NCBI GenBank assembly: GCA_003599425.1
Contig: QZKC01000035.1
Coordinates: 1 to 32,854 of the forward strand
DNA length: 32,854 bases
Source: Nitrospiraceae bacterium
GTDB lineage: Bacteria; Nitrospirota; Thermodesulfovibrionia; UBA6902
Direction of reading: 5' to 3'
Part shown: piece by piece, positions 15,851 to 27,203 of the stretch
Layout: every line of letters starts with the position of its first letter
Position numbering within the stretch: the stretch's first letter is position 1
Notes under the pieces: generated by a model
The model's input: only the letters and a program-made list of their open reading frames with translations
Databases searched by the model: none
Told to the model about the DNA's origin: nothing
Position numbers and translations under genes: made by a program

Positions 15851-15911
15851 TTGAAAAAATATCACGTTTAAAATTATAGTAATAAACTTGATTTTCAAGA
15901 TTAAACGTGAT
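15851..15911 (+). promoter_or_regulatory. Promoter with 11-bp inverted-repeat operator for the cytochrome operon
   Basis: TTGAAA (15851-15856) and TATAGT (15875-15880) with an 18-base spacer. An exact inverted pair, ATCACGTTTAA (15861-15871, in the spacer) and TTAAACGTGAT (15901-15911), straddles the expected start of transcription; the second arm ends right before the GGAGGG ribosome-binding site. Between them is a smaller palindrome CTTGATTTTCAAG (15888-15900). The arms could be two sites for a dimeric regulator bound across the -10 box, or, in RNA, only the inner hairpin would form since the left arm is upstream of the start. Confidence 0.55.
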
Positions 15912-15920
15912 GGAGGGTTA

Positions 15921-17288
15921 ATGAAACACAAAACGATCATTCTTCTTTTTATTGTCGCAGTTGCTGCTGTGCTTTTGACTGTTTTTTCTGAACGCCCCAT
16001 ATCTGCACAGCAAAAAGCCACGGAGAAACAAACTGAATCCTGCATAACTGCTCAGTGCCACGCCAAGGTGGGCAAGGAAAAATTTGTTCACGGCCCCATC
16101 GCAGCAGGAGAATGCACCATCTGTCACGGCGAGTCCCCAAAACACAGGGATGACCCGAAAAACAACAAATTCAAACCGATAAAGAACATATCCGAAAAAT
16201 GTTATAGCTGCCATGAGAAATTCAAGACAAAAAAATTCACCCATGTCCCGGTTCAGGATGGGGACTGTCTGGCCTGTCATAATGCTCACGGTTCGGAATT
16301 CAAGTTTCAGTTGAAAGCCAAGGGAGGAGAGATGTGTTTTACCTGCCATGACGATGCAATAGTCAGCGGCAAGTTTGTTCACGGCCCTGCTGCTGTCGGA
16401 GGATGCGTCGCGTGCCATGAACCTCATACAGCGGATTACGCAAAAAACCTGAAGGCCGAAGGACCGGAGCTTTGCTACACATGCCATACTGAAAAGGCGG
16501 AGATAATTCACAAATCACAGTTTGTGCATAAACCTGTTTCGGAAAAGTGCACAAGCTGCCATAACCCCCATTCTGCGTCAAAACAGTTTATGCTTGAGGC
16601 CGAATCACCGGCGCTGTGCCTGACCTGTCATAAAGACAAGAAAGACCAGTTGGCCAGTGTTACTGTCAAGCACGGAGCTATCGATAGAGACAAGTCATGT
16701 CTGAACTGTCATGATGCGCACAATTCCAACATCGCCAAAAACCTTTTGATGGAACCCATGGATATGTGCCTGAACTGTCATAACAGGGAATACAAGAGGG
16801 AAAACGGAAAACCCGTCAGCGATATGAAGAAATGGCTTGCGGAAAATACGGACTATCACGGACCGATCAAACAGAAGGACTGTTCAGGATGCCACAACCC
16901 TCACGGCTCAACCAATTTCAGGATACTGAGATATTATTATCCCCCGACCTTTTATGAGCCTTTCAGCGTTGAAAACTACAACCTCTGTTTCAGTTGCCAT
17001 GAAAAGACGCTTGTGCTGAACCCGGAAACAACAAAGCTGACCAATTTCAGGAACGGTAACATGAACCTGCATTTTTTACATGTCAACAAAGCGGTTAAGG
17101 GGAGGACCTGCCGTGCGTGTCATGAAACCCATGCGAGCAATTACCCGAAGCACATAAGAGAGGCCGTACCATTTGGTGGATGGGAACTGCCGCTTAATTT
17201 TCAGAAGACCGACTCTGGGGGGAGTTGTACCCCAGGCTGTCACAAGATCAAAAAATATGACAGAGAGAAAAAGGAAGCAAATTTATGA
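15921..17288 (+). CDS. Multihaem c-type cytochrome, 13 canonical plus 2 variant haem motifs
   Basis: A 455-residue protein with an N-terminal signal peptide (hydrophobic about 6-22, likely cut after SAQ), so it acts in the periplasm or outside. Thirteen CXXCH haem-c motifs lie between about residues 62 and 410, many in pairs separated by a short NPHGS- or EPHTA-type linker (paired CXXCH, doubled-motif family). Two further sites have odd spacing: CITAQCH at 41-47 (CX4CH) and CTPGCH at 436-441 (CX3CH). It should move electrons across the periplasm or to extracellular acceptors. The start ATG at 15921 follows GGAGGG; an upstream TTG reading is not needed. The stop overlaps the next gene's start (ATGA). 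Confidence 0.93.
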   Translation: MKHKTIILLFIVAVAAVLLTVFSERPISAQQKATEKQTESCITAQCHAKVGKEKFVHGPIAAGECTICHGESPKHRDDPKNNKFKPIKNISEKCYSCHEKFKTKKFTHVPVQDGDCLACHNAHGSEFKFQLKAKGGEMCFTCHDDAIVSGKFVHGPAAVGGCVACHEPHTADYAKNLKAEGPELCYTCHTEKAEIIHKSQFVHKPVSEKCTSCHNPHSASKQFMLEAESPALCLTCHKDKKDQLASVTVKHGAIDRDKSCLNCHDAHNSNIAKNLLMEPMDMCLNCHNREYKRENGKPVSDMKKWLAENTDYHGPIKQKDCSGCHNPHGSTNFRILRYYYPPTFYEPFSVENYNLCFSCHEKTLVLNPETTKLTNFRNGNMNLHFLHVNKAVKGRTCRACHETHASNYPKHIREAVPFGGWELPLNFQKTDSGGSCTPGCHKIKKYDREKKEANL

Positions 17289-18292
17289 TCATCTTTATAT
17301 TTCTCATAACGTTTTTTCTTGCATTCAGTCCGGTCTCCGAGGCCGTGAGCGTTTCCCCCGGACAGCCCGCGCCGTCATTTACATTGAACTCGATTGGCGG
17401 GAAATACGTGTCCCTCAGTGAATACAAAGGTGAGGTCGTGATTCTCATTTACTGGAAGACCGGACATGAGCGTTCATTGATGGCCCTGAAAGACGCGGAC
17501 CAGGAAATGAAAAAATATGACAAAAAAGGAGTCAGGGCCATAAGCGTTATTGCTGACAGCGACAGTAAGGAGGAAGCAGCCTCAGCGCTTAAAAGCAGCG
17601 GCATTGATTTCCCCGTATTGATAGACGCCGACAGGCAACTTTACAGCAATTACGGGATCCGGGTTTATCCTTCAACGATTATCATAGACAAACAGGGCAT
17701 GGTTGCTTACGATATACCAAGCCATGCACCGTCTTACAGAAATACACTTGACGGCTATATCAGACAGGTCCTTGGAGAGATCAGCGAGGAAGAGCTAAAG
17801 TCGACCCTTGCCCCGCACAGGGAAGATCAGGACAAGGCAAAGCTTGAGGCCTTGCGGCTGTATAACCTTTCGCTGAAATTTGCCCAATCCGGGATGCTTG
17901 AACAGGCAACAGACGCAGCTATAAAATCTGTTGAAGCCAAGCCTGATATGGCGCAATCGCACATCCTCCTTGGTTTTCTGCAACTTGAAAACAGAAATGC
18001 CGACAGCGCTCTGCAAGCGTTCAATAAGGCCGTAGATCTCGAGCCGCGTTCGCATGATGCGCAAACCGGGCTTGGCGGCGCGCTTCTTTTAAAAGGAGAC
18101 GTTGACAGGGCAATAGAGGTGCTGAATAATGCCGCAACGGCCAATCCGTATCCGCAGTCTACATATTATCAGCTTGGCAAGGCTTATGAACTCAAGGGCG
18201 ATAAGGACCGGGCGATAGAGATGTACAAGAAGGCTATGGAGAAAATAATAAAGAAACAGATCCTTCCCTCAGCAATATCCAGATGTCAATAA
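17285..18292 (+). CDS. TlpA/peroxiredoxin-like protein without catalytic cysteines, with TPR tail
   Basis: A 335-residue exported protein (signal peptide about 1-20). Residues about 24-165 form a TlpA/AhpC-type thioredoxin fold: GQPAPSFTLNSIGGK, a strand VVILIYWKTGHERS, FPVLIDADRQLY and the cis-Pro loop RVYPSTIIID. Where ResA/TlpA has W-C-P-P-C, this protein has G60-H61-E62-R63-S64, and the only cysteine is the penultimate residue, so it cannot do disulfide exchange. Residues about 189-327 hold about four TPR repeats (ATDAAIKSVEAKPDMAQS, ALQAFNKAVDLEPRSHD, AIEVLNNAATANP, AIEMYKKAMEKI). Being wedged by overlaps between two multihaem cytochromes, it is probably a periplasmic scaffold or assembly factor for them (inference). 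Confidence 0.88.
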   Translation: MIIFIFLITFFLAFSPVSEAVSVSPGQPAPSFTLNSIGGKYVSLSEYKGEVVILIYWKTGHERSLMALKDADQEMKKYDKKGVRAISVIADSDSKEEAASALKSSGIDFPVLIDADRQLYSNYGIRVYPSTIIIDKQGMVAYDIPSHAPSYRNTLDGYIRQVLGEISEEELKSTLAPHREDQDKAKLEALRLYNLSLKFAQSGMLEQATDAAIKSVEAKPDMAQSHILLGFLQLENRNADSALQAFNKAVDLEPRSHDAQTGLGGALLLKGDVDRAIEVLNNAATANPYPQSTYYQLGKAYELKGDKDRAIEMYKKAMEKIIKKQILPSAISRCQ

Positions 18293-19317
18293 GAGTAGTA
18301 GCACTCTTTTATTTAATAATCTCCCTACTGCCTTTTTTCTGTTCAAACGCATATGCGGCTGATCAGGGTATGATCACGGTCCATTATCCTCCTGACAGGA
18401 CGGTCCGAGAATTTGGGGTACTGAGTGTTTCACTGAGCGTACCGGAAGGGTCGGCGGATCTATTAAAAGTTATCGTTAACGACGTGTTAAGAGTGGAGAT
18501 CAAACCTGAACGCACATTTGCATGTTTTACAGTTCCGATAAAATTGGGGGTCAATACAATAAACATCAGTGCCCTCAAAGGAGTGAAACAGGTGGATTCA
18601 GCAGCCTTCAGCGTCTTTCGAAAATCTGACCTTGAGGGGAAGTTCATAAGCCCTCTCCCCATCTATCGGAAAGATAATTTTCACATAAAAGATAATGGAA
18701 AGTGCGCTCAATGCCATAAACTGGAACCAGTAGAGTCAGACCTGAAACCTTTCAACGGAGCTTCAATTAAGGGGGCAGATAAGGACAGGGAAAAGGCGCT
18801 CTCCGCCACCTCGACATGTTACTCATGCCATAAGAAGATCACTTCATATAAATATGTTCACGGCCCGGCCGCTGTCTGGAGCTGTCTGAGCTGCCACGAT
18901 AAAATAGCAGAACCGAAATATGCGGTGAAGAAACCTGATACTGAAGTTTGCTTCGCATGCCATACTGACAAAAAGAAGGAATGGAGCGCCATGAAATATA
19001 CCCATGGCCCGGTCACGATCGGCAAATGCGCCATCTGCCACAGTCCCCACGCCTCTGATTATGCGTTCAATCTTGTGAAGCCGACCTGGGACCTTTGCAC
19101 AACATGCCATTTTGAAAAAGGGACTGGTACACATGTGCTTGGAGATTCGATATTTGCGGAAGGGCATCCGACCCGCAACCGCCCTGACCCGATGCGGAAA
19201 GGCCAGGAGCTTACCTGCGCAAGCTGCCATAGTCCCCATACCTCTAACTTCCCTCACCTTTGGGCCTTTGACGTGAACAGTCTCTACGAATTCTGCCAGA
19301 AGTGCCATAACAAGTAG
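18283..19317 (+). CDS. Octahaem c-type cytochrome with N-terminal Ig-like domain
   Basis: A 344-residue protein with a signal peptide (likely cut after NAYA, about residue 25). Residues about 30-115 look like a beta-sandwich (MITVHYPPDRTV, GVLSVSLSVPEGSADLLKV, VPIKLGVNTINISALKG), and residues about 140-343 carry eight CXXCH motifs: CAQCH, CYSCH, CLSCH, CFACH, CAICH, CTTCH, CASCH and CQKCH. Pairs are separated by HSPHASD- and HSPHTSN-type linkers, as in the first gene of the operon. The start overlaps the end of the TlpA-like gene by 10 bases, so expression is probably coupled. It is likely an electron-transfer partner of the larger cytochrome; terminal acceptor unknown. Confidence 0.92.
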   Translation: MSIRVVALFYLIISLLPFFCSNAYAADQGMITVHYPPDRTVREFGVLSVSLSVPEGSADLLKVIVNDVLRVEIKPERTFACFTVPIKLGVNTINISALKGVKQVDSAAFSVFRKSDLEGKFISPLPIYRKDNFHIKDNGKCAQCHKLEPVESDLKPFNGASIKGADKDREKALSATSTCYSCHKKITSYKYVHGPAAVWSCLSCHDKIAEPKYAVKKPDTEVCFACHTDKKKEWSAMKYTHGPVTIGKCAICHSPHASDYAFNLVKPTWDLCTTCHFEKGTGTHVLGDSIFAEGHPTRNRPDPMRKGQELTCASCHSPHTSNFPHLWAFDVNSLYEFCQKCHNK

Positions 19318-19512: not shown

Positions 19513-19710
19513 ACATCCTATAACTGGACCGACCCAGTATTAAATCCACGATCCGGTTTAATAAAAGCAGTACACATAAATGAGTTACGCACAGCTATTG
19601 ATCAGGCAATCGGAAATCAAAGCTGGAGCGACCCGATTCAACCAGGAATAACGATAATGAAAGCCATTCATATTCAGGAATTGCGCAGCACGATACAAAA
19701 TGCATGGTAA
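19513..19710 (+). pseudogene. C-terminal fragment of a giant secreted protein like the one at 22330
   Basis: Sixty-five codons without a plausible start codon, matching the last residues of the 1320-residue protein. It has the same SYNWTDP start, two of the three HIxELR motifs (IKAVHINELRTAI and MKAIHIQELRSTI), and the same ending AW-stop. The upstream part of the gene is missing; the upstream 190 bases hold only short repeats. The similarity continues past the stop codon for 57 identical bases, so this is a genuine duplicate remnant, not a small gene with a shared domain. It might be read as a short ORF from a TTG at 19507, but nothing supports expression. Confidence 0.8.
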
Positions 19711-19767
19711 TTGAGATGATTGCTTTTCAATAGAAATGAATACGTTAATTTGAGAAGGAGGGGATAG
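19513..19767 (+). repeat. Upstream copy of a duplicated gene end plus 57 noncoding bases
   Basis: Pairs with 26096-26349. The coding part is similar but diverged; 19711-19767 is identical to 26293-26349 and includes the AAGGAGGGG ribosome-binding site that serves the fibre-protein gene in the downstream copy. Here that gene is gone: 24 bases later the left end of the transposase element begins. Confidence 0.85.
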
Positions 19768-19791
19768 AGGAAAAGAACGTGGGAAAAGAAC

Positions 19792-20878
19792 GGGGTCAGC
19801 CCTTGAAAGAATACGTGTGAAGTGCGATAGCAGAATAAAGTCTTGATTCAAGACCGCAGGGTCGTTTAATCTATTCTATCATTTGAACGTCGAGGGGACA
19901 CGATGGCAAGACCGTTACGGATAGAGTATGAAGGCGCAGTGTATCATGTCACTGCAAGGGGCAACGAGCGGACGAAAATATATTTGTCACAAAGCGATTA
20001 CGATAAGTTTTTGCAATATCTGGCCGACGCTAAGAAAAAGTACAACATAGTTATTCATTGCTACGTATTGATGGGCAATCATTATCATTTGATCGTGGAA
20101 ACTCCCGATGCAAATCTCAGCAAGGCGATGCAATATATCAACGGATCATACACAACGTATTTAAACATAAGGAGGAGAAGGAGCGGACATTTATTTCAGG
20201 GTAGATATAAAGCGATTGTGGTTGATACGGATAATTACCTGCTGGAACTGAGCAGATATATTCATCTTAATCCTGTAAGGGCAGTAATCGTAGGGAAGCC
20301 GGAGGATTATAAACACAGCAGTTATAAAACATATATTGCGAAAAGTGATAGTGCGTTGATAACAGATCATTTAGTGCTGGGCCTGATGAAGCATCACAAA
20401 AGTAATGCTAAAGACGAATACAGAGCGTTTGTAGAAGATGCAATTGGTATAGAACTCGACAATCCGGTAATAAATATTTATGGCGGGATGATTCTCGGCA
20501 GAGCAGGATTTATTAGAGAGACCTTAAAAACAATCAAAGAAGAATATTACAGGAGGGAGGAGGTATCGCATAGAAAAAAACTGAGAGCAGTTTGCGAAAT
20601 AAAAGACGTACTTGAGGCAGTTTCAAATTACTTTTCCGTGATGCAAAAAAATGCAGGTAAGATTTCATTTTTAGAGCCGAGAGATATTGCCATTTATCTT
20701 ATGAAAGAAAGTACAGGGGCAACAAACCGGGAAATAGGGGAAGCATTCGGGAGACTGAGTTATTCAGCAGTATCCAAGGTTTATCAGAAAATGAAAATTG
20801 ATATGAAAAGGAATAGGAAGATGAAACGGATCGTCACAGAAATTCATAGTAGTTTGTATAATTTCAAGGGCTGACCCC
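19792..20878 (+). mobile_element. REP-type HUH transposase element with 16-bp terminal inverted repeats
   Basis: The ends GGGGTCAGCCCTTGAA (19792-19807) and TTCAAGGGCTGACCCC (20863-20878) are exact complements, enclosing one transposase gene. The stop codon TGA of that gene (20872-20874) lies inside the right end. A 7-base-arm palindrome GTCTTGATTCAAGAC (19840-19854) lies between the left end and the gene and could be a subterminal recognition hairpin. No target-site duplication is seen, which fits the single-strand chemistry of Y1 HUH transposases. GGGGTCAG-type flanks are, as I recall, typical of this group. Confidence 0.78.
19903..20874 (+). CDS. REP-associated tyrosine transposase (Y1 HUH)
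   Basis: A 323-residue member of the IS200/TnpA_REP group. It starts MARPLRIEYEGAVYHVTARG, typical for the family. The metal-binding HUH motif is in MGNHYHLIVETP (about residues 57-68) and the nucleophile Tyr candidate is in YLLELSRYIHLNPVRA (about 107-122). The C-terminal third (about 255-315) has a helix-turn-helix part, TNREIGEAFGRLSYSAVSKV, resembling a DnaA C-terminal-type DNA-binding domain, as in longer members of this family. The start is ATG 19903 with GAGGGG about 7 bases upstream. No frameshift is visible, so it may be active. Confidence 0.92.
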   Translation: MARPLRIEYEGAVYHVTARGNERTKIYLSQSDYDKFLQYLADAKKKYNIVIHCYVLMGNHYHLIVETPDANLSKAMQYINGSYTTYLNIRRRRSGHLFQGRYKAIVVDTDNYLLELSRYIHLNPVRAVIVGKPEDYKHSSYKTYIAKSDSALITDHLVLGLMKHHKSNAKDEYRAFVEDAIGIELDNPVINIYGGMILGRAGFIRETLKTIKEEYYRREEVSHRKKLRAVCEIKDVLEAVSNYFSVMQKNAGKISFLEPRDIAIYLMKESTGATNREIGEAFGRLSYSAVSKVYQKMKIDMKRNRKMKRIVTEIHSSLYNFKG

Positions 20879-21101
20879 GATTGCACTATTGCAGGATGAG
20901 GGCAGTGCATCACTTTTTCATTGACAGGAATTTGGATGATATGCAATTATTAATTCGATTCACTCAGGCCGTTACACTATCACCAATTGATGTGCTGATT
21001 AAAAGGGAGGGGGCTACCCTGTGGCATCAAGTTGTTCAGACAGAATCAAATCAATCAGCATAAACAATATTCTATTCGTTAAATCATAAAGAGGTATGAC
21101 T

Positions 21102-22277
21102 ATGAAAAAGACAATTCTTGCAAGATCAATCATGGCAGTATTCATTATTCAGTTATTAGTGACATATGATGTATTTGCTGAGAAGTCGATTAAAACGTTA
21201 TTGAATGAAATCAAGTTAGCAGGTAGTGCCCAAGAGAAATCCAAAATATTAAGGCAATTGCAAGAAAAAAGCCCGGTAACTACGGAAGACGAAGTAGCGG
21301 TAATTGATGCTCTCGATAACAGCGATTTAGATGTGCAAGAAACAGCAGTGGAAATTGTTTCATCAGCAAAAATCAAAAATGCGTCTGGAAAATTACTTCA
21401 GAAGGTAAGAGACATACCAAAAATAAAAGTAGAAAAGGTGTCGCCTGAAAAAGAGAAAGAATACCGGATTAAGAGCCTCTCGGCTTTAGCATTGTCGGAG
21501 ATGAAAGACATGAAAGCCTTGCCTGTAATTATCACATTATTAGGTGAAGCTCCCTCGCAAGCCGCTTATGATGAAAACATACTTGCCATCAGTGCGGTTA
21601 ATTATGGCAAAGATGCCTTGAAGCCGGTTACTAAAAAGATCGAGGAATACGGCAGAAGAAATCCTTACGGTAAGATGCGATTATTGTCAGTCGTTATGAA
21701 TATGAAAGATAGAGATGCAATTTCTGATCTGAAGAATATGTTTGATGACAGCAATGACCCTGACGTTAAATCGGCAGCAGCGCGCGGATTAAGGAATTTG
21801 GGAACGCCAATTGAAATATCAAAAATAATAAATACGCTTGAGCAGGTAGAAAGTAACCCGCAAAGAGGAAAACAATGGCGTGAAACGAGACTTGATCTGA
21901 TAAAGGAATTAGGATTCTCCGGGAATCCAGAGGCAATACCTATGCTCAAATCAAATATAGATAGGGAACTGAAAAGGGATCGTTTTAATCCATCTTGTTA
22001 CAGTGAAACACTTGCATTAGCAAGAATAGGAGGTCAGGAGAGTTATCAATTTCTCATAACTATTTATAACGAACATAAGAACTTACAGGGTGACATAATT
22101 ATGGCATTTGGCAATGGAAAAATGTCAGAAGCAATACCGTTTTTGATCAAATTAATTAATGATAGAAATATTGACAAGCAATTGCGTTTGTACGGCACAG
22201 ATAGTCTCGGGCATATTACAGGCGAAAAAGAAAAATATATGAAAGTTCGCTGGGAAATAGAATCTGATAAGAGATGA
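21102..22277 (+). CDS. Secreted HEAT-repeat protein
   Basis: A 391-residue protein with a signal peptide (KKTILARSIMAVFIIQLL, likely cut after FA at about 26). The rest is alpha-helical repeats of HEAT/PBS-lyase type, for example VAVIDALDNSDLDVQETAVE, ALPVIITLLGEAPSQAAYD, AISDLKNMFDDSNDPDVKSA, AIPMLKSNIDRELK and AIPFLIKLINDRNIDKQL. Such proteins are scaffolds for protein binding; no enzymatic motif is visible. ATG 21102 is chosen because GAGG at 21091-21094 is 7 bases away; ATG at 21096 would be too close. It is followed 52 bases later by the giant secreted protein, in the same orientation. The gap 20879-21101 holds only a weak 60-codon reading frame. Confidence 0.8.
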   Translation: MKKTILARSIMAVFIIQLLVTYDVFAEKSIKTLLNEIKLAGSAQEKSKILRQLQEKSPVTTEDEVAVIDALDNSDLDVQETAVEIVSSAKIKNASGKLLQKVRDIPKIKVEKVSPEKEKEYRIKSLSALALSEMKDMKALPVIITLLGEAPSQAAYDENILAISAVNYGKDALKPVTKKIEEYGRRNPYGKMRLLSVVMNMKDRDAISDLKNMFDDSNDPDVKSAAARGLRNLGTPIEISKIINTLEQVESNPQRGKQWRETRLDLIKELGFSGNPEAIPMLKSNIDRELKRDRFNPSCYSETLALARIGGQESYQFLITIYNEHKNLQGDIIMAFGNGKMSEAIPFLIKLINDRNIDKQLRLYGTDSLGHITGEKEKYMKVRWEIESDKR

Positions 22278-22329
22278 GTAAGTGATTAACTGTTGTTCAT
22301 TAAAATTGAAAAGCATATAAGGAAACAAG

Positions 22330-25300
22330 ATGCCTATAAATATCTCGAAACGATTCTCTGCAATTCTTATTTGTTTTATCGTTATTTTGTTAAGCACAAG
22401 GTTATTTGCGTGGGATAGCATTGGTTCATACACTCACAGGCAGATAGCAGTAGATGCTGTGTCTTTATTGACGCCTGCTGAATATCCTGACATAGATATG
22501 TTTGCTGACAATTTGATTGAATATAGTGCAGATGAAAACTGTTCTCATGGCTGGGATTTTCTATGGGCCAATGGGGGAGATACTTTGGAGCTATGGCGTG
22601 ACAAAGTGTCTTCTGACTACAATGGAGGTGACTATGGCAATGCATATGAGTATATCGGCTGTATACTTCATTTAGTAGAGGATCAGGGGGTGCCTTCGCA
22701 TGCTTTTGATATTAATCATGGAGTGTATTGGGCATGGGGTTGGGAGAGAGTTGGCGACTTCGTGGAGAAATACGCCAATAAGGCAGAAAATGATCAAAGC
22801 TATTATTCTTACGGATCCATTTCTATCCAGCCGGGGAATGACCCGGTCGCTTTCTATGGAAATATGATTAGTAGAACACAAAGTGTTGTCATAACAAATA
22901 TTGTCACTCCTCCACCTGGAGAAACCTGGTCTGATTATTGGCAGCCGGGTACTTTCGGACCGCTCCAATTTCCTCCCGACAGAAGTGAAAGCTGGTATGT
23001 TATACAGCATGATAATTTAGTGCGGCAAAGGATTACAGAGTCGATCAATTATGTTGCTGGGAATATGGCTGCTGCATCAAAAAAATTGCCTCCACTTATT
23101 CAAAACATGGTGATCGTTCCTACATCCTCCATATCCCCTCAAATCGATATTACCTACGGTACCCAAATCAGCTTACAGATATTTGAAAACCGCAAGCCGA
23201 CAGTAAAGATTTTTATGACCGTTGATTCATCTACAGGGGCAGGAATAATTGATTCCTCTTATCGAACCGGCAAGTCTTTTACTCTCACCACAGGTACAAG
23301 CCTTCCATGGGAAGGCAATTATACAATTACATGGGACGGCTTTCTCGAAGACGGCACGTATCCCTCTGACGGGCAGCATACGTTATATGTCCAGGTTCAG
23401 GATGAAGATGGGAATCTATCTTCTGTTTCTACACATCTCTTCACCATTTACACCACCCCTGTCCTCACCATCAGCAAAACCGGCAACGGTACTGTGACAG
23501 CATCGGGAATATCCTGTGGCAATGATTGTTCACAAAGCTACGCACATGGCACTCCTGTAACTCTGACTGCAACCCCTGACTCAGGATGGACATTCGGGAG
23601 TTGGTCGGGATGCGACAGCACGTCAGGGACAAACTGTTATGTAACAATGAACGGAGATAAGACAGTCACAGCCCAGTTTACATGGTCAGGAAACTGGACT
23701 AAGGTAACAGTTGATTCAGCTGGGAGTATTTATGGTTATACCTCCTTGGTTATAGATTCAAACGATAAAATTCACATCAGTTATTATGATGAAACTAACC
23801 ACGTTCTTAAATATGCAACGAATGTATCCGGGTCATGGTCTTACTCTTCTCTGGGCATCAGCTGCTGGGGGGCTAATTCAATAGCAGTAGATTCATCGAA
23901 CAAAATTCATATAAGCTGCTATGACGGATTTCTTCATTATGTGACTAATAGCCCTGGATATTGGTATAACCAGACAATAGACAACAGTAGCCGTCCTGTG
24001 GGCGATTTCAACTCTATCGCAATAAATTCATTAAACAAGGTGTACATCAGTTATTCTGACGCGGCCAATGGTGATCTGAAATATGCAACGAACGCATCCG
24101 GATACTGGAACACTTATACTCTGGACAGCTACGGAATTGTAGGTTCTGACACCTCCATAGCTATAGATTCATCCAATAAGCTGCATATCAGCTACCACGA
24201 TGTGGCTAATGGTAATCTGAAATACGCAACGAATACGTCCGGTGTCTGGAATTATCAGACCCCGGATAATAATAGTGGAGATGTGGGTGAGTACACCTCG
24301 ATAGCTGTAGATTCATTAAAAAAGGTACATATCAGTTATTACGATGTGACTAACGGAAATCTTAAATATGCAACGAATGCATCCGGCTCATGGAGTTTAC
24401 AGACAATAGACAGTGGCGGCAATGTGGGACTGGATACTTCCATCGCAATAGATTCAAACAACAAAGTACACATCAGTTATTATGATGCGACTAACGGTAA
24501 CCTGAAGTATGCAACCAACGCATCCGGGTCATGGATTATCAAAACAGTGGACAGCAGCGATGATGTAGGGGAATATTCCTCTATAGCCATTGATTCTTTG
24601 GATTACGCTCATATCAGCTATTCGGATTCAACTCATAGCGATCTGAAATATGCAAACAACGCTGCAGTCACAGTTGATAAATATACTCTCGTTGTAAGCA
24701 AATCAGGTTCGGGCACAGGGGCAATAACAAGCGCTCCAGTCGGGATAAACTGTGGCGGGATTTGCAGGGAGTCATACGATCAGGATACTCTGCTTACTCT
24801 GACGGCAACGCCGGATATCAATTCAACCTTCAACGGCTGGAGCGGAGGAGGATGTAGTGGAACGGGAACATGTGAAGTAACGGTCGATAGTGATATATCG
24901 GTAACAGCTACTTTCAATTCAAAGATGTCCACTATAAGTGCTATTTACGATAGCGGTAAAGGGGTCATTTCTCCTTCATCTGCGCTTGTTACTTATGGAG
25001 ATGATCAGACATTTTCCATAACTGCAAATGCCGGATATCACATTACGAATGTATTTATAGATGGTAGCCCAGTCGGCACAGTTCCGGCATATACTTTCTC
25101 CAATGTAATTTCAGCCCATACGATAGAAGCGAGCTTTGCTATAAATACCTATCTCATAGCAGGAAGCGCAGGTACTGGGGGAGGTGTATCGCCTTCACAG
25201 TCAACAGTCAATTACGGAGGAAGCCAAACAGTCTCTATAACACCTAATTCAGGTTATCATGTAGCTGATGTTCTAATTGATGGTGTATCAATAGGGCCTG

Positions 25301-26292
25301 TATCCTCATACCAGTTCACAAACATAACAGCGGACCATCTGGTAGAAGCGATATTTGAACCTGATTGCACGCCGACATCAACTGATGAAACGATATGTAA
25401 TGGAGTTGATGATGACTGCGATAGTTCTATCGATGAGGACTATATAGCGATACCTACCACATGCGGAACCGGTGCTTGCGCCTCTTCCGGCCAAATGCAA
25501 TGTCAAAACGGGTCTGTCGTCGATACCTGCACGCCCGGCACTCCTGCTTCTAACGATTCCGTATGTAACGGTATCGATGACGACTGTAATGGGTTAATCG
25601 ATGAAGATTATGTTGTATCGGGTACTAATTGTGGCACTGGCGTATGTGCTTCAACGGGGCAGAATTTATGTCAGAACGGAGCTATAGTTAATACATGCGT
25701 TCCATTTCCTCCTAATGCTCCTACGGATACAACATGCAATGGTATTGATGATGATTGCAACGGTCAAATCGATGAGGATTATCCGGTATCACCAACTAAT
25801 TGCGGCATAGGAGCTTGTGCGTCAACAGGACAAATGCAGTGTCAGGGCGGTTCAGAGATTAATACATGTACTCCAGGAACGCCACAAATTGAAGGGCCTT
25901 ACAGCAGCCCAACGTGCTCTGACTCTGTTGATAATGACTGTGACGGTTTAACTGACATAAATGATCCTGCATGTCCTCCGCCACCAACATGGACGGACGA
26001 TTCTCTTATCCCCGGAGCAACTGAATTAAAAGCCATACATATTACCGAGCTAAGAAATGCCGTAAATCTATTACGTAACAAGAGAGGATTTGGCTCATAC
26101 AACTGGACTGACCCGACTTTAACTTCTCAAAGCAGCATAATCAGAGGGACACATATAACCGAATTGCGTAACACGATTGATCAGGCAATAGGTGCTCAAA
26201 GCTGGACAGACAACCCGATTCAGCCAGAAATAACAATAATGAAAGCCATTCATATTCAGGAACTGCGGGATGCGATTGAGAATGCATGGTAA
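22330..26292 (+). CDS. Giant secreted mosaic protein with zinc phospholipase C-like front domain
   Basis: A 1320-residue exported protein. Residues 1-27 are a signal peptide, leaving Trp28 as the mature first residue. About 28-250 resembles zinc-dependent phospholipase C (S1/P1 superfamily): W28, H36, H73 and H114-x3-D118-x5-H124 in LHLVEDQGVPSHAFD match the ligand order of Bacillus PLC; the last pair appears as E139/D143. About 300-375 is Ig/FlgD-like; 377-453 is an InlB-B-type repeat; 456-777 holds seven 47-48-residue blades (HISYYD...LKYATNASGSW), likely a beta-propeller; 784-1011 has three more InlB-B-type repeats; 1013-1216 has MopE-type CNGIDDDCNGQIDED calcium/metal motifs, four in all; 1220-1320 has three WTD...HIxELR repeats. 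Probably a surface or secreted lipase/binding protein; activity untested. AT-rich. Confidence 0.85.
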   Translation: MPINISKRFSAILICFIVILLSTRLFAWDSIGSYTHRQIAVDAVSLLTPAEYPDIDMFADNLIEYSADENCSHGWDFLWANGGDTLELWRDKVSSDYNGGDYGNAYEYIGCILHLVEDQGVPSHAFDINHGVYWAWGWERVGDFVEKYANKAENDQSYYSYGSISIQPGNDPVAFYGNMISRTQSVVITNIVTPPPGETWSDYWQPGTFGPLQFPPDRSESWYVIQHDNLVRQRITESINYVAGNMAAASKKLPPLIQNMVIVPTSSISPQIDITYGTQISLQIFENRKPTVKIFMTVDSSTGAGIIDSSYRTGKSFTLTTGTSLPWEGNYTITWDGFLEDGTYPSDGQHTLYVQVQDEDGNLSSVSTHLFTIYTTPVLTISKTGNGTVTASGISCGNDCSQSYAHGTPVTLTATPDSGWTFGSWSGCDSTSGTNCYVTMNGDKTVTAQFTWSGNWTKVTVDSAGSIYGYTSLVIDSNDKIHISYYDETNHVLKYATNVSGSWSYSSLGISCWGANSIAVDSSNKIHISCYDGFLHYVTNSPGYWYNQTIDNSSRPVGDFNSIAINSLNKVYISYSDAANGDLKYATNASGYWNTYTLDSYGIVGSDTSIAIDSSNKLHISYHDVANGNLKYATNTSGVWNYQTPDNNSGDVGEYTSIAVDSLKKVHISYYDVTNGNLKYATNASGSWSLQTIDSGGNVGLDTSIAIDSNNKVHISYYDATNGNLKYATNASGSWIIKTVDSSDDVGEYSSIAIDSLDYAHISYSDSTHSDLKYANNAAVTVDKYTLVVSKSGSGTGAITSAPVGINCGGICRESYDQDTLLTLTATPDINSTFNGWSGGGCSGTGTCEVTVDSDISVTATFNSKMSTISAIYDSGKGVISPSSALVTYGDDQTFSITANAGYHITNVFIDGSPVGTVPAYTFSNVISAHTIEASFAINTYLIAGSAGTGGGVSPSQSTVNYGGSQTVSITPNSGYHVADVLIDGVSIGPVSSYQFTNITADHLVEAIFEPDCTPTSTDETICNGVDDDCDSSIDEDYIAIPTTCGTGACASSGQMQCQNGSVVDTCTPGTPASNDSVCNGIDDDCNGLIDEDYVVSGTNCGTGVCASTGQNLCQNGAIVNTCVPFPPNAPTDTTCNGIDDDCNGQIDEDYPVSPTNCGIGACASTGQMQCQGGSEINTCTPGTPQIEGPYSSPTCSDSVDNDCDGLTDINDPACPPPPTWTDDSLIPGATELKAIHITELRNAVNLLRNKRGFGSYNWTDPTLTSQSSIIRGTHITELRNTIDQAIGAQSWTDNPIQPEITIMKAIHIQELRDAIENAW
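23700..24660 (+). repeat. Seven tandem repeats of about 140 bp encoding a beta-propeller
   Basis: Each unit encodes SIAIDSSNKLHISY...NGNLKYATNASGSW or a close variant. The middle units are very alike in DNA (repeated CTNAAATATGCAACGAA words), pointing to recent internal duplication or conversion; the first two and last units are more diverged. Confidence 0.75.
25366..25980 (+). repeat. Tandem MopE-type Cys/Asp-rich repeats
   Basis: Three units of the form CNGIDDDCNGxIDEDY followed by NCGTGACASTGQMQCQNG and NTCxPGTP, plus a fourth degenerate unit CSDSVDNDCDGLTD. Asp/Cys spacing fits the putative metal-binding (MopE/PF11617-like) family. Confidence 0.75.
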
Positions 26293-26349
26293 TTGAGATG
26301 ATTGCTTTTCAATAGAAATGAATACGTTAATTTGAGAAGGAGGGGATAG
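26096..26349 (+). repeat. Downstream copy of duplicated gene end plus 57 noncoding bases
   Basis: Pairs with 19513-19767. It covers the last two WTD...HIxELR repeats of the giant gene, its stop codon and the leader of the fibre-like gene, ending just before that gene's start codon. Confidence 0.85.
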
Positions 26350-26351
26350 TT

Positions 26352-27203
26352 ATGGAAATCAGAAAAGTAAGAGAGATGATTTTATTGTTTTTTACGATTA
26401 TTACCTTATTAAGTCTTGGATTACTTTCAGCGCATGCACAAGACATGACAATTGATACCAATGGCAATGTCGGCATCGGGACGACAGGTCCCAATACCAA
26501 ATTAGAGATTAATGCAAATGGAGTGACGAATGGCGGAGCTATTCGTATTAGTGGTCTTCCCAGCTCACAAAATACACTCATCGAAGCCGCTATAAATGGG
26601 GGCGCTGTTGGTATGAAAATCCAATCTGCCGGGAGTGTCCAGGAATATTTCATGGTCACTGATTCAAATTCACACCCTAAGTTTACAGTAGATACTTCAT
26701 ACGGTAAGGTCGGCATCGGAACAGATGCACCTGATGCAACACTTCATGTAATTGGTGATGCTCACATGACAGGTGAGTTAATAGTTGATGGCAATATTGC
26801 AGCCAAATATCAGGATCTTGCCGAATGGGTGAGGACATCCGAACCTTTGACCAAAGGCACAGTGGTAATGATAGACCTTGAGAATAATGACCAGGTGCTT
26901 CCCTCTGACATGTCCTACAATACTCTTGTCGCAGGCGTTGTATCAGAAGCACCGGGAATTGTGCTTGGAGAAAAGGCGGACAATAAAGCCATCATTGCCC
27001 ATACAGGCAGAGTGAAAGTCAAAGTTGATACTAATTTCGGAGCTATCTCAAGAGGCGATCTCCTCGTAACGAGCCCTGTTAAAGGTTACGCCATGAAAGC
27101 TGATGCGGACAAGCTGAAACCGGGTATGCTTCTCGGCAAAGCGCTTGAACCTCTTAAAGAAGGTCAGAAGAGGGAAATACTGGTATTGATAACGTTGCAG
27201 TAA
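26352..27203 (+). CDS. Secreted fibre-like protein with possible peptidase-G2-type C-terminal domain
   Basis: A 283-residue protein with a signal peptide (likely cut after SAHA, about 29). Two copies of the tail-fibre-like word NVGIGTTGPNTKLEI / KVGIGTDAPDATLHV (about 37-51 and 118-132) are separated by a beta-rich stretch, followed by a TGELIVDGNIAA bridge. The C-terminal half, from YQDLAEWVRTSEPLTKG through NTLVAGVVSEAPGIVLG and RVKVKVDTNFGAISRGDLLV, resembles domains found at the ends of phage tail fibres and secreted fibres (peptidase_G2/IMC-like); the autocleavage residue cannot be confirmed. The start has AAGGAGGGG 7 bases upstream. It is 59 bases behind the giant protein and probably co-transcribed. 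Confidence 0.75.
   Translation: MEIRKVREMILLFFTIITLLSLGLLSAHAQDMTIDTNGNVGIGTTGPNTKLEINANGVTNGGAIRISGLPSSQNTLIEAAINGGAVGMKIQSAGSVQEYFMVTDSNSHPKFTVDTSYGKVGIGTDAPDATLHVIGDAHMTGELIVDGNIAAKYQDLAEWVRTSEPLTKGTVVMIDLENNDQVLPSDMSYNTLVAGVVSEAPGIVLGEKADNKAIIAHTGRVKVKVDTNFGAISRGDLLVTSPVKGYAMKADADKLKPGMLLGKALEPLKEGQKREILVLITLQ

What the first reader, a model, noticed from the sequence alone, without database searches (positions are those of the whole stretch)
21102..27203. Candidate undescribed secreted system: HEAT protein, phospholipase C-like mosaic, fibre-like protein
Three exported proteins in a row (gaps 52 and 59 bases), AT-rich, next to a transposase element and a duplicated remnant. The central one joins a zinc phospholipase C-like domain to a seven-bladed propeller, InlB-B-type repeats, MopE-type metal motifs and a triple C-terminal repeat; the last one looks like a phage-fibre end. 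Together they suggest a membrane-damaging or prey/host-attaching machine whose parts are secreted separately. No dedicated secretion apparatus or immunity gene was recognised; the HEAT protein is the only candidate for a partner or immunity role.
Basis: partly seen in the sequence, partly recalled or inferred. Interest (0 to 1): 0.72.

Follow-up and report, generated by a model that had tools for sequence, protein, structure and literature searches.

The report
Secreted phospholipase-like protein with two partners
A large exported protein with a phospholipase-like front end lies between two genes whose relatives also neighbour its separate halves in other bacteria, which suggests an undescribed surface-displayed enzyme with an export helper and a fibre, though no activity has been shown.

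Summary
In detail: three exported genes in a row in an uncultured Nitrospirota genome. They look like two recurring gene pairs fused through the middle gene. Pair 1: an exported HEAT protein directly upstream of a zinc-PLC-like domain. Of 35 family members (window included; Nitrospirota and Elusimicrobiota) 12 have HEAT upstream: 11 of 12 long ORFs, 1 of 23 short ones. HEAT and PLC distances correlate (r 0.76, 0 of 20000 permutations). Five core metal residues are kept in 35 of 35. Pair 2: a triple "ELR" repeat (no Pfam, NCBIfam or PDB match), at the C-terminus in 11 of 12 copies, is followed by a fibre gene in 8 of the 11 copies with DNA downstream. L063, in another class, has HEAT, PLC mosaic and a small fibre-like gene in the same order. 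Best reading: a Sec-exported, surface-displayed PLC-like enzyme, HEAT as periplasmic helper, ELR plus fibre as display cassette. The neighbourhoods are shown; display, binding and enzyme activity are inferred. HEAT as immunity remains possible but is less likely, because 22 short PLC proteins with the same core residues show no HEAT upstream.

The parts
21096..22277 (+). Gene 1: exported HEAT-repeat protein (393 aa), partner of the PLC-like protein
   Evidence: PF13646 57 bits; HEAT proteins directly upstream of PLC-like genes in 11 other loci
22330..26292 (+). Gene 2: 1320-aa exported mosaic protein
22330..23097 (+). Signal peptide and zinc-PLC-like domain of gene 2; candidate metal residues W28 H36 D54 H73 H114 D118 H124 H130 E146
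23098..23451 (+). Ig-like domain (FlgD_ig-like) conserved with the PLC domain (approximate limits)
   Evidence: weak PF13860 hit below cut-off; aligned with L057 and in A6
23464..23682 (+). InlB-B (Flg_new_2) repeat, best-scoring stretch; further ones lie after the propeller
23692..24654 (+). Seven-repeat beta-propeller region (approximate limits)
   Evidence: repeats counted by eye in the translation
25375..25974 (+). MopE-type metal-motif / cysteine-rich region (approximate limits)
   Evidence: PF11617 in 4 stretches; similar stretches elsewhere in the genome
25987..26289 (+). ELR triple repeat, C-terminal (three units of about 33 aa around T-x-I-K-A-x-H-I-x-E-L-R)
   Evidence: no Pfam, NCBIfam or PDB match
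26293..26351 (.). 59-base intergenic stretch with a GGAGG-type site; nearly all of it also follows the remnant
   Evidence: 66 of 66 identical bases across the gene-2 end and the intergenic stretch
26352..27203 (+). Gene 3: exported fibre-like protein (283 aa)
   Evidence: PDB 8ojn/8ond matches; PHROG tail fibre; fibre genes next to ELR genes elsewhere
26757..27200 (+). C-terminal tip domain of gene 3
   Evidence: alignment A5; matches in 11 Pseudomonas phage records
19513..19767 (+). Remnant: second copy of an ELR gene end and intergenic stretch, without fibre gene

Best explanation
Gene 2 is a Sec-exported, probably surface-displayed hydrolase of the zinc phospholipase C / P1 nuclease superfamily. 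Its propeller, InlB-B and MopE-type parts act as spacer or binding region. The upstream HEAT protein is a dedicated periplasmic partner, more likely a helper for folding or export of the long mosaic than an immunity protein. The ELR triple repeat and the neighbouring fibre form a second, payload-independent cassette that most likely displays or holds the protein at the surface, in the place that a type IX sorting tail and a PorV-like gene take in some Elusimicrobiota relatives. Shown: the gene pairs and their recurrence, the conserved residues, the tails. Inferred: enzyme activity, HEAT role, ELR-fibre binding, surface location.
For: HEAT directly upstream in 12 of 35 PLC-Ig members: 11 of 12 ORFs of at least 500 aa against 1 of 23 shorter ones (Fisher 3.3e-7, not corrected for kinship). 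HEAT and PLC identity distances correlate over 12 pairs (r 0.757, 0 of 20000 permutations), with shared sister pairs that cross phyla (L063-L207, L057-L180). 0 of 41 PLC-core ORFs of other subfamilies have HEAT upstream. H114 D118 H124 H130 E146 in 35 of 35; profile match to zinc PLC structures. ELR followed by a fibre gene in 8 of 11 copies with DNA downstream, behind differing N-terminal domains. ELR-linked tips (7) separate from 5 unlinked ones with support 0.995. Elusimicrobiota PLC mosaics: TIGR04183 above its cut-off of 23 in the ORF that continues L180 (30.9) and L200 (24.0), below it in L188 (22.4), L098 (21.0) and L100 (17.2); PorV-family gene next in L098, L100, L188.
Against: No structure, activity or localisation. 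H142 of the classical H-x3-E pair is not at its usual place. L056, a long PLC protein in the window's own genus, has no HEAT upstream. Three ELR copies have no fibre downstream: the window remnant; L050, whose genome has no gene-3 match at all; and L197 in Elusimicrobiota, where ELR is N-terminal and only a weakly fibre-like gene lies directly upstream. ELR-tip distance correlation is weak (r 0.46, 161 of 5040 permutations). The short PLC proteins are mostly one clade (20 of 22 without HEAT), so the length pattern rests on few independent events. Gene 1 is 52 bases from gene 2; in 6 of the 11 other pairs the genes overlap by exactly 4 bases. The anchorless-fibre argument is weak: the Y-Q-G start domain was found in only 2 of 5 unlinked fibres.
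Confidence: 0.43

Rival explanations
1. Toxin and immunity: the PLC-like mosaic attacks competitor membranes and the HEAT protein is a periplasmic immunity protein, the fibre an attachment part.
For: HEAT proteins are listed among immunity proteins of polymorphic toxin systems (PMC3482391, passages only). HEAT and PLC seem to travel together across phyla. In another PLC-core group an unrelated exported protein sits in the same upstream slot (18 of 41 ORFs), and such pairs form tandem arrays in L131 and L134, as toxin-immunity pairs can (recalled).
Against: The 22 short PLC-Ig proteins without HEAT keep the same core metal residues. The enzyme is N-terminal, not a swapped C-terminal tip, and the partner is upstream. 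The Patescibacteria-type PLC loci show neither partner model.
Confidence: 0.27
2. Nutrient exoenzyme: a secreted phospholipase or P1-like nuclease that scavenges phosphate or fatty acids; HEAT is a chaperone and the fibre is a separate surface gene.
For: A stand-alone relative (L097) lies next to a GDPD glycerophosphodiesterase gene (PF03009 145.9 bits). The superfamily holds both phospholipases and nucleases (PMC3482391 passage).
Against: Does not explain the ELR-fibre linkage; a GDPD neighbour was noted in one locus only and not searched for in the others.
Confidence: 0.2
3. The three genes are chance neighbours near a transposase.
For: None of the 46 other genomes searched in the order has the trio, and the region bears a mobile element and a duplicated remnant.
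Against: Both pairs recur elsewhere, and L063 has HEAT, PLC mosaic and a small fibre-like gene in order.
Confidence: 0.05

Closest known systems
Zinc-dependent phospholipase C (B. cereus PLC and related) / S1-P1 nuclease superfamily
   Same: Profile match to several PDB entries; Trp right after the signal peptide, His and Asp/Glu ligand pattern
   Different: No PF00882 hit; H142 equivalent shifted (H130, D-x2-E); embedded in a 1320-aa mosaic; HEAT gene upstream
Mosaic adhesive trimer (MAT) fibres of Bdellovibrio (PMC10769870; sections 10, 12, 16 and passages read)
   Same: Sequence matches to Bd3182 and Bd2133 structures; repeated VGIGT...P...L stretches; varying tips
   Different: Gene 3 has no room for the roughly 130-aa MAT N-terminal domain; a different tip; an ELR gene as neighbour
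Type IX secretion sorting tail with PorV
   Same: In some Elusimicrobiota relatives the HEAT-PLC payload ends in such a tail, with a PorV-family gene next in three loci
   Different: Gene 2 has no such tail; ELR repeat and fibre stand in that position
Polymorphic toxin systems with Imm-HEAT (PMC3482391, passages)
   Same: HEAT protein next to a hydrolase whose fold is related to a described toxin domain (Het-C)
   Different: Exported HEAT upstream, N-terminal enzyme, no swapped C-terminal tips

Membership tests
Zinc-dependent phospholipase C | Conserved metal-ligand set | tested here: met
   H114 D118 H124 H130 E146 35 of 35; W28 33, H36 32, D54 32, H73 31 of 35, the rest mostly gaps; by sequence only, and the H142 position differs
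Zinc-dependent phospholipase C | Match to the curated family model PF00882 | tested here: not met
   No PF00882 match listed up to E 1; only the family profile matches PDB members
Zinc-dependent phospholipase C | Phospholipase activity with zinc | not testable with these tools
   needs an assay
MAT fibre | About 130-aa conserved N-terminal beta-rich domain after the signal peptide | tested here: not met
   First VGIGT stretch starts about 10 residues after the signal peptide in gene 3; definition from PMC10769870 section 10
MAT fibre | Trimeric beta-helix with capping loops | tested here: inconclusive
   Sequence matches to 8ojn, 8ond; no structure predicted
Type IX secreted protein | C-terminal sorting domain | tested here: not met
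   No sorting-domain match in gene 2 in Pfam or NCBIfam up to E 1
Type IX secreted protein | SprA translocon in the genome | tested here: inconclusive
   PF14349 0 of 47 genomes, but the 14 control genomes were silent too
Polymorphic toxin system | Variable C-terminal toxin domain with immunity gene downstream | tested here: not met
   Enzyme is N-terminal; the C-terminal ELR is the constant part of the ELR proteins; HEAT lies upstream
Polymorphic toxin system | Partner neutralises the enzyme | not testable with these tools
   needs an assay

The most novel reading that the evidence does not exclude
The ELR triple repeat and its neighbouring fibre are an undescribed, payload-independent surface-display cassette: an exported protein that bears ELR is caught by its own phage-like fibre, much as type IX tails depend on their own outer-membrane machinery; the HEAT-PLC pair is one payload that changes between these sorting routes.
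Probability: 0.27. Interest if true: 0.75.

Novelty: new variant of a known kind. Interest (0 to 1): 0.57.

Why it matters
If right, it gives uncultured Nitrospirota and Elusimicrobiota a surface enzyme system with a testable helper, and a new repeat that predicts which proteins are displayed on fibres. The same payload behind a type IX-like tail in one lineage and ELR plus fibre in another would show how bacteria change secretion routes. Print: in the held open-licence library, searches listed 5, 0, 0 and 0 papers and one search listed 6 of 13; none of the 11 titles seen is about a HEAT-PLC gene pair (of one, PMC3482391, I saw passages). One search for the repeat listed one unrelated title.

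Tried and rejected
The three genes as one operon conserved in the order were rejected: among the 46 other genomes gene 1 had weak HEAT matches in 3, the PLC domain matches in 2 and gene 3 matches in 10, never on one contig together. Plasmid origin: no plasmid match at E 1e-3 for the ELR repeat or the PLC domain. Defence system: only two weak PADLOC hits (E 0.0026 and 0.0084). Type IX secretion in the order: inconclusive. That the long HEAT proteins of L100 and L183 carry the regulatory-like partner domain found no sequence support. ELR in the 8 genomes: none, without positive control.

Limits: of the 65 places listed I examined 31 (rows 1-3 already held as L097, L100, L098; rows 4-31 fetched); the 34 weaker ones were not examined for HEAT. 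Dropped as duplicates before counts: L099 (=L063), L101 (=L056), L113 (=L131). 'No HEAT' means no hit of my five-sequence HEAT profile at E 1e-3 and may miss others. ORFs come from a simple script; in GC-rich loci overlapping frames can mislead. Domain limits inside gene 2 are approximate.
Full report
What is there. The window is a whole contig (G000:C25). Three ORFs lie on the + strand at 21096-22277, 22330-26292 and 26352-27203 with gaps of 52 and 59 bases, each with a signal-peptide-like start (by eye). Gene 1 is a HEAT protein; gene 2 carries InlB-B and MopE-type repeats; gene 3 has no Pfam match above cut-off but matches Bdellovibrio MAT fibre structures (entries identified in a passage of PMC10769870) and PHROG tail fibres.

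The N-terminal domain of gene 2. Single-sequence searches give no PLC hit. An alignment of 15 relatives finds zinc phospholipases C in the PDB with E 3.3e-8 (1olp), 7.7e-8 (8cqm) and 1.8e-5 (1ah7). Over 35 members H114, D118, H124, H130 and E146 are present in 35; W28 in 33, H36 and D54 in 32, H73 in 31, the rest being mostly gaps. W28 directly follows the apparent cleavage site, as the N-terminal Trp ligand does in known enzymes (recalled). The classical H142 is not at its usual spacing; H130 or D143 (33 of 35, 2 gaps) may replace it. By sequence the metal site looks intact; its geometry is untested.

Pair 1, HEAT and PLC. In the order (47 genomes, own included) the PLC domain matches in 3 and gene 1 in 4, the others weakly. 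In the phylum (295 genomes) a 4-row profile rings in 40, but only G000, G061 and G150 score above 250 bits; the rest are core-motif matches of at most 39 bits. G150 (L057) and G061 (L063) have an exported HEAT protein directly upstream of the PLC gene. A named scan gave 25 loci: three Elusimicrobia with a full domain, two of them with HEAT overlapping by 4 bases and one, L097, with a GDPD gene instead; two records already held (L099, L101); and 20 others that match a smaller part of the domain. A profile search of 255 genomes in the phylum of L097 matched 41; I examined the 31 best of the 65 places listed. Of the resulting 35 PLC-Ig members (31 there, 4 Nitrospirota), 12 have HEAT directly upstream: 11 of 12 with an ORF of 500 aa or more, 1 of 23 shorter (L207, broken near a contig end). 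The long exception is L056, in the window's genus. All 12 upstream proteins exceed the PF13646 cut-off. Three of them (L100, L183, L184) show a lipoprotein-type Cys by eye. HEAT and PLC distances correlate with r 0.757, none of 20000 permutations reaching it, and both trees share sister pairs that join Nitrospirota and Elusimicrobiota members: the pair seems to move between phyla as a unit, though neighbours inherit together by linkage alone. In the midpoint-rooted PLC tree 20 of the 22 short members without HEAT form one clade, with L097 and L181 elsewhere.

Controls for pair 1. Among 41 PLC-core ORFs in 37 further loci none has HEAT upstream (one search counted 44 in 38 before the duplicate L113 was dropped). 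Unexpectedly, 18 of these 41, in 14 loci, have another exported or lipoprotein-like protein in the same slot, weakly like the carboxypeptidase regulatory domain (below cut-off), overlapping by exactly 4 bases in 5; none of the 35 PLC-Ig members has it. So two unrelated partner families occupy the same upstream position before the same enzyme class. This fits a need for a partner in export, but also fits immunity; tandem arrays in L131 and L134 lean to the latter for that group.

Pair 2, ELR and fibre. The last 101 aa of gene 2 are three units of about 33 aa. They match 5 of 47 genomes of the order, 4 of 295 of the phylum (two of them already counted), 1 of 395 in the phylum of L112, and 0 of 8 others without positive control. 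No Pfam, NCBIfam or PDB match exists for the region. With L197, found when I rechecked the Elusimicrobiota loci, twelve copies are known. A fibre gene follows directly on the same strand in 8: window, two in L047 (one fibre split into two ORFs), L048, L049, L122, L123 and L145 (ELR fragment, broken fibre). It does not follow the window remnant, nor L050, which has 889 bases downstream without one, nor L197. L144 has only 206 bases left and is not counted, which gives 8 of 11. In L197 the repeat is N-terminal, right after the signal peptide, and a small exported gene lies directly upstream instead; it has a VGIG...P...LDV stretch but is only weakly fibre-like (best blastp E 2e-4 against five fibres, no MAT structure hit). 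The ELR proteins differ otherwise: cohesin-like, SBBP propeller, RCC1 and fn3, InlB-B, a weak TSP3 hit, or no match. Seven ELR-linked tip domains separate from five unlinked ones with support 0.995; ELR and tip distances correlate weakly, 161 of 5040 permutations reaching r 0.46. Gene 3 has no room for the roughly 130-aa MAT N-terminal domain of PMC10769870 (section 10). A Y-Q-G start motif, which I take for that kind of domain from memory, was found in 2 of 5 unlinked fibres (L051, L055; two of the other three are cut or lack a clear start) and in none of the seven linked ones apart from a chance ring inside a VGIGT stretch of L123. A fibre without an evident anchor beside an ELR protein is why I propose that the two bind; this is a lead, not proof.

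The sorting comparison. In Elusimicrobiota the HEAT-PLC payload can end in type IX sorting-domain-like tails: TIGR04183 30.9 bits in the ORF that continues L180 and 24.0 in the one that continues L200 (cut-off 23), 22.4 in L188, 21.0 in L098, 17.2 in L100; a PorV-family gene above its cut-off follows in L098, L100 and L188; the other HEAT-linked loci were not tested for it. In L063 a 140-aa fibre-like gene follows the PLC mosaic: my fibre profile missed it at E 1e-3, but it matches MAT structures weakly (8on4, E 8e-4) and other fibres (blastp E 1e-12 with L047, 1e-7 with gene 3). That gives HEAT, PLC mosaic, fibre-like in one order as in the window, without ELR. Hence payload and tail cassette seem separable, and of the 35 PLC-Ig loci only the window's protein bears ELR.

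The remnant. 66 of 66 bases over the end of gene 2 and the intergenic stretch, up to about the fibre start, equal those after the remnant, against 137 of 186 before. This suggests recent recombination at an ELR-fibre boundary, beside a REP-associated transposase flanked by 24-base inverted repeats.

Mechanism and likelihood. Most likely gene 2 is exported by Sec, aided in the periplasm by the HEAT protein, crosses the outer membrane by an unknown route, and is held at the surface through ELR and the fibre, where the PLC-like domain hydrolyses lipids or other phosphodiesters of other cells or debris. My odds: the two recurring pairs 0.85, HEAT as helper 0.45 against 0.3 for immunity, ELR-fibre binding 0.37, hydrolase activity 0.7. 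The Imm-HEAT precedent comes from passages of PMC3482391.

Noticed in passing
L112, L127-L134, L137-L141 (upstream of PLC-core ORFs): A second exported partner family (178-270 aa, weakly CarboxypepD_reg-like) sits directly upstream of 18 of 41 PLC-core ORFs, with tandem arrays of pairs in L131 and L134.
   Followed up: partly
L197:15418-16872 and 16826-17239, - strand: An Elusimicrobiota protein carries the ELR triple repeat at its N-terminus, overlapping a small, weakly fibre-like exported gene directly upstream.
   Followed up: partly
19791-20879: REP-associated Y1 transposase with a DnaA C-terminal domain (19903-20874), flanked by 24-base inverted repeats, 92% complementary.
   Followed up: partly
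19513-19767: Copy of a gene-2 end whose last 66 bases, including the intergenic stretch, are identical to those before gene 3.
   Followed up: yes
26757-27200 and Pseudomonas phages of 285-288 kb: The fibre tip domain has no Pfam or NCBIfam match above cut-off yet matches 11 Pseudomonas phage records (PA5oct and others) at about 33% over 80%.
   Followed up: partly
L049:10050-16559 and L123:12328-17955: RHS proteins lie upstream (within about 1.5 kb) of ELR-fibre pairs in two loci; the L123 one ends in an HNH domain. Other loci were not checked for RHS.
   Followed up: no
L097:8928-9806: A GDPD glycerophosphodiesterase gene directly precedes a stand-alone PLC-Ig gene.
   Followed up: no
L100:7521-8420 and L183:2492-3391: Two HEAT partners are lipoprotein-like (by eye) with a shared extra N-terminal region, 50% identical, without Pfam match.
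   Followed up: no
G000 contigs C2, C13, C27, C45, C69, C94: Stretches like the MopE-type cysteine-rich part of gene 2 recur in long open frames (up to 4428 aa) of the same genome.
   Followed up: no
15888-17288 and 18283-19317: Multihaem cytochromes with doubled CXXCH motifs just upstream of the region.
   Followed up: no
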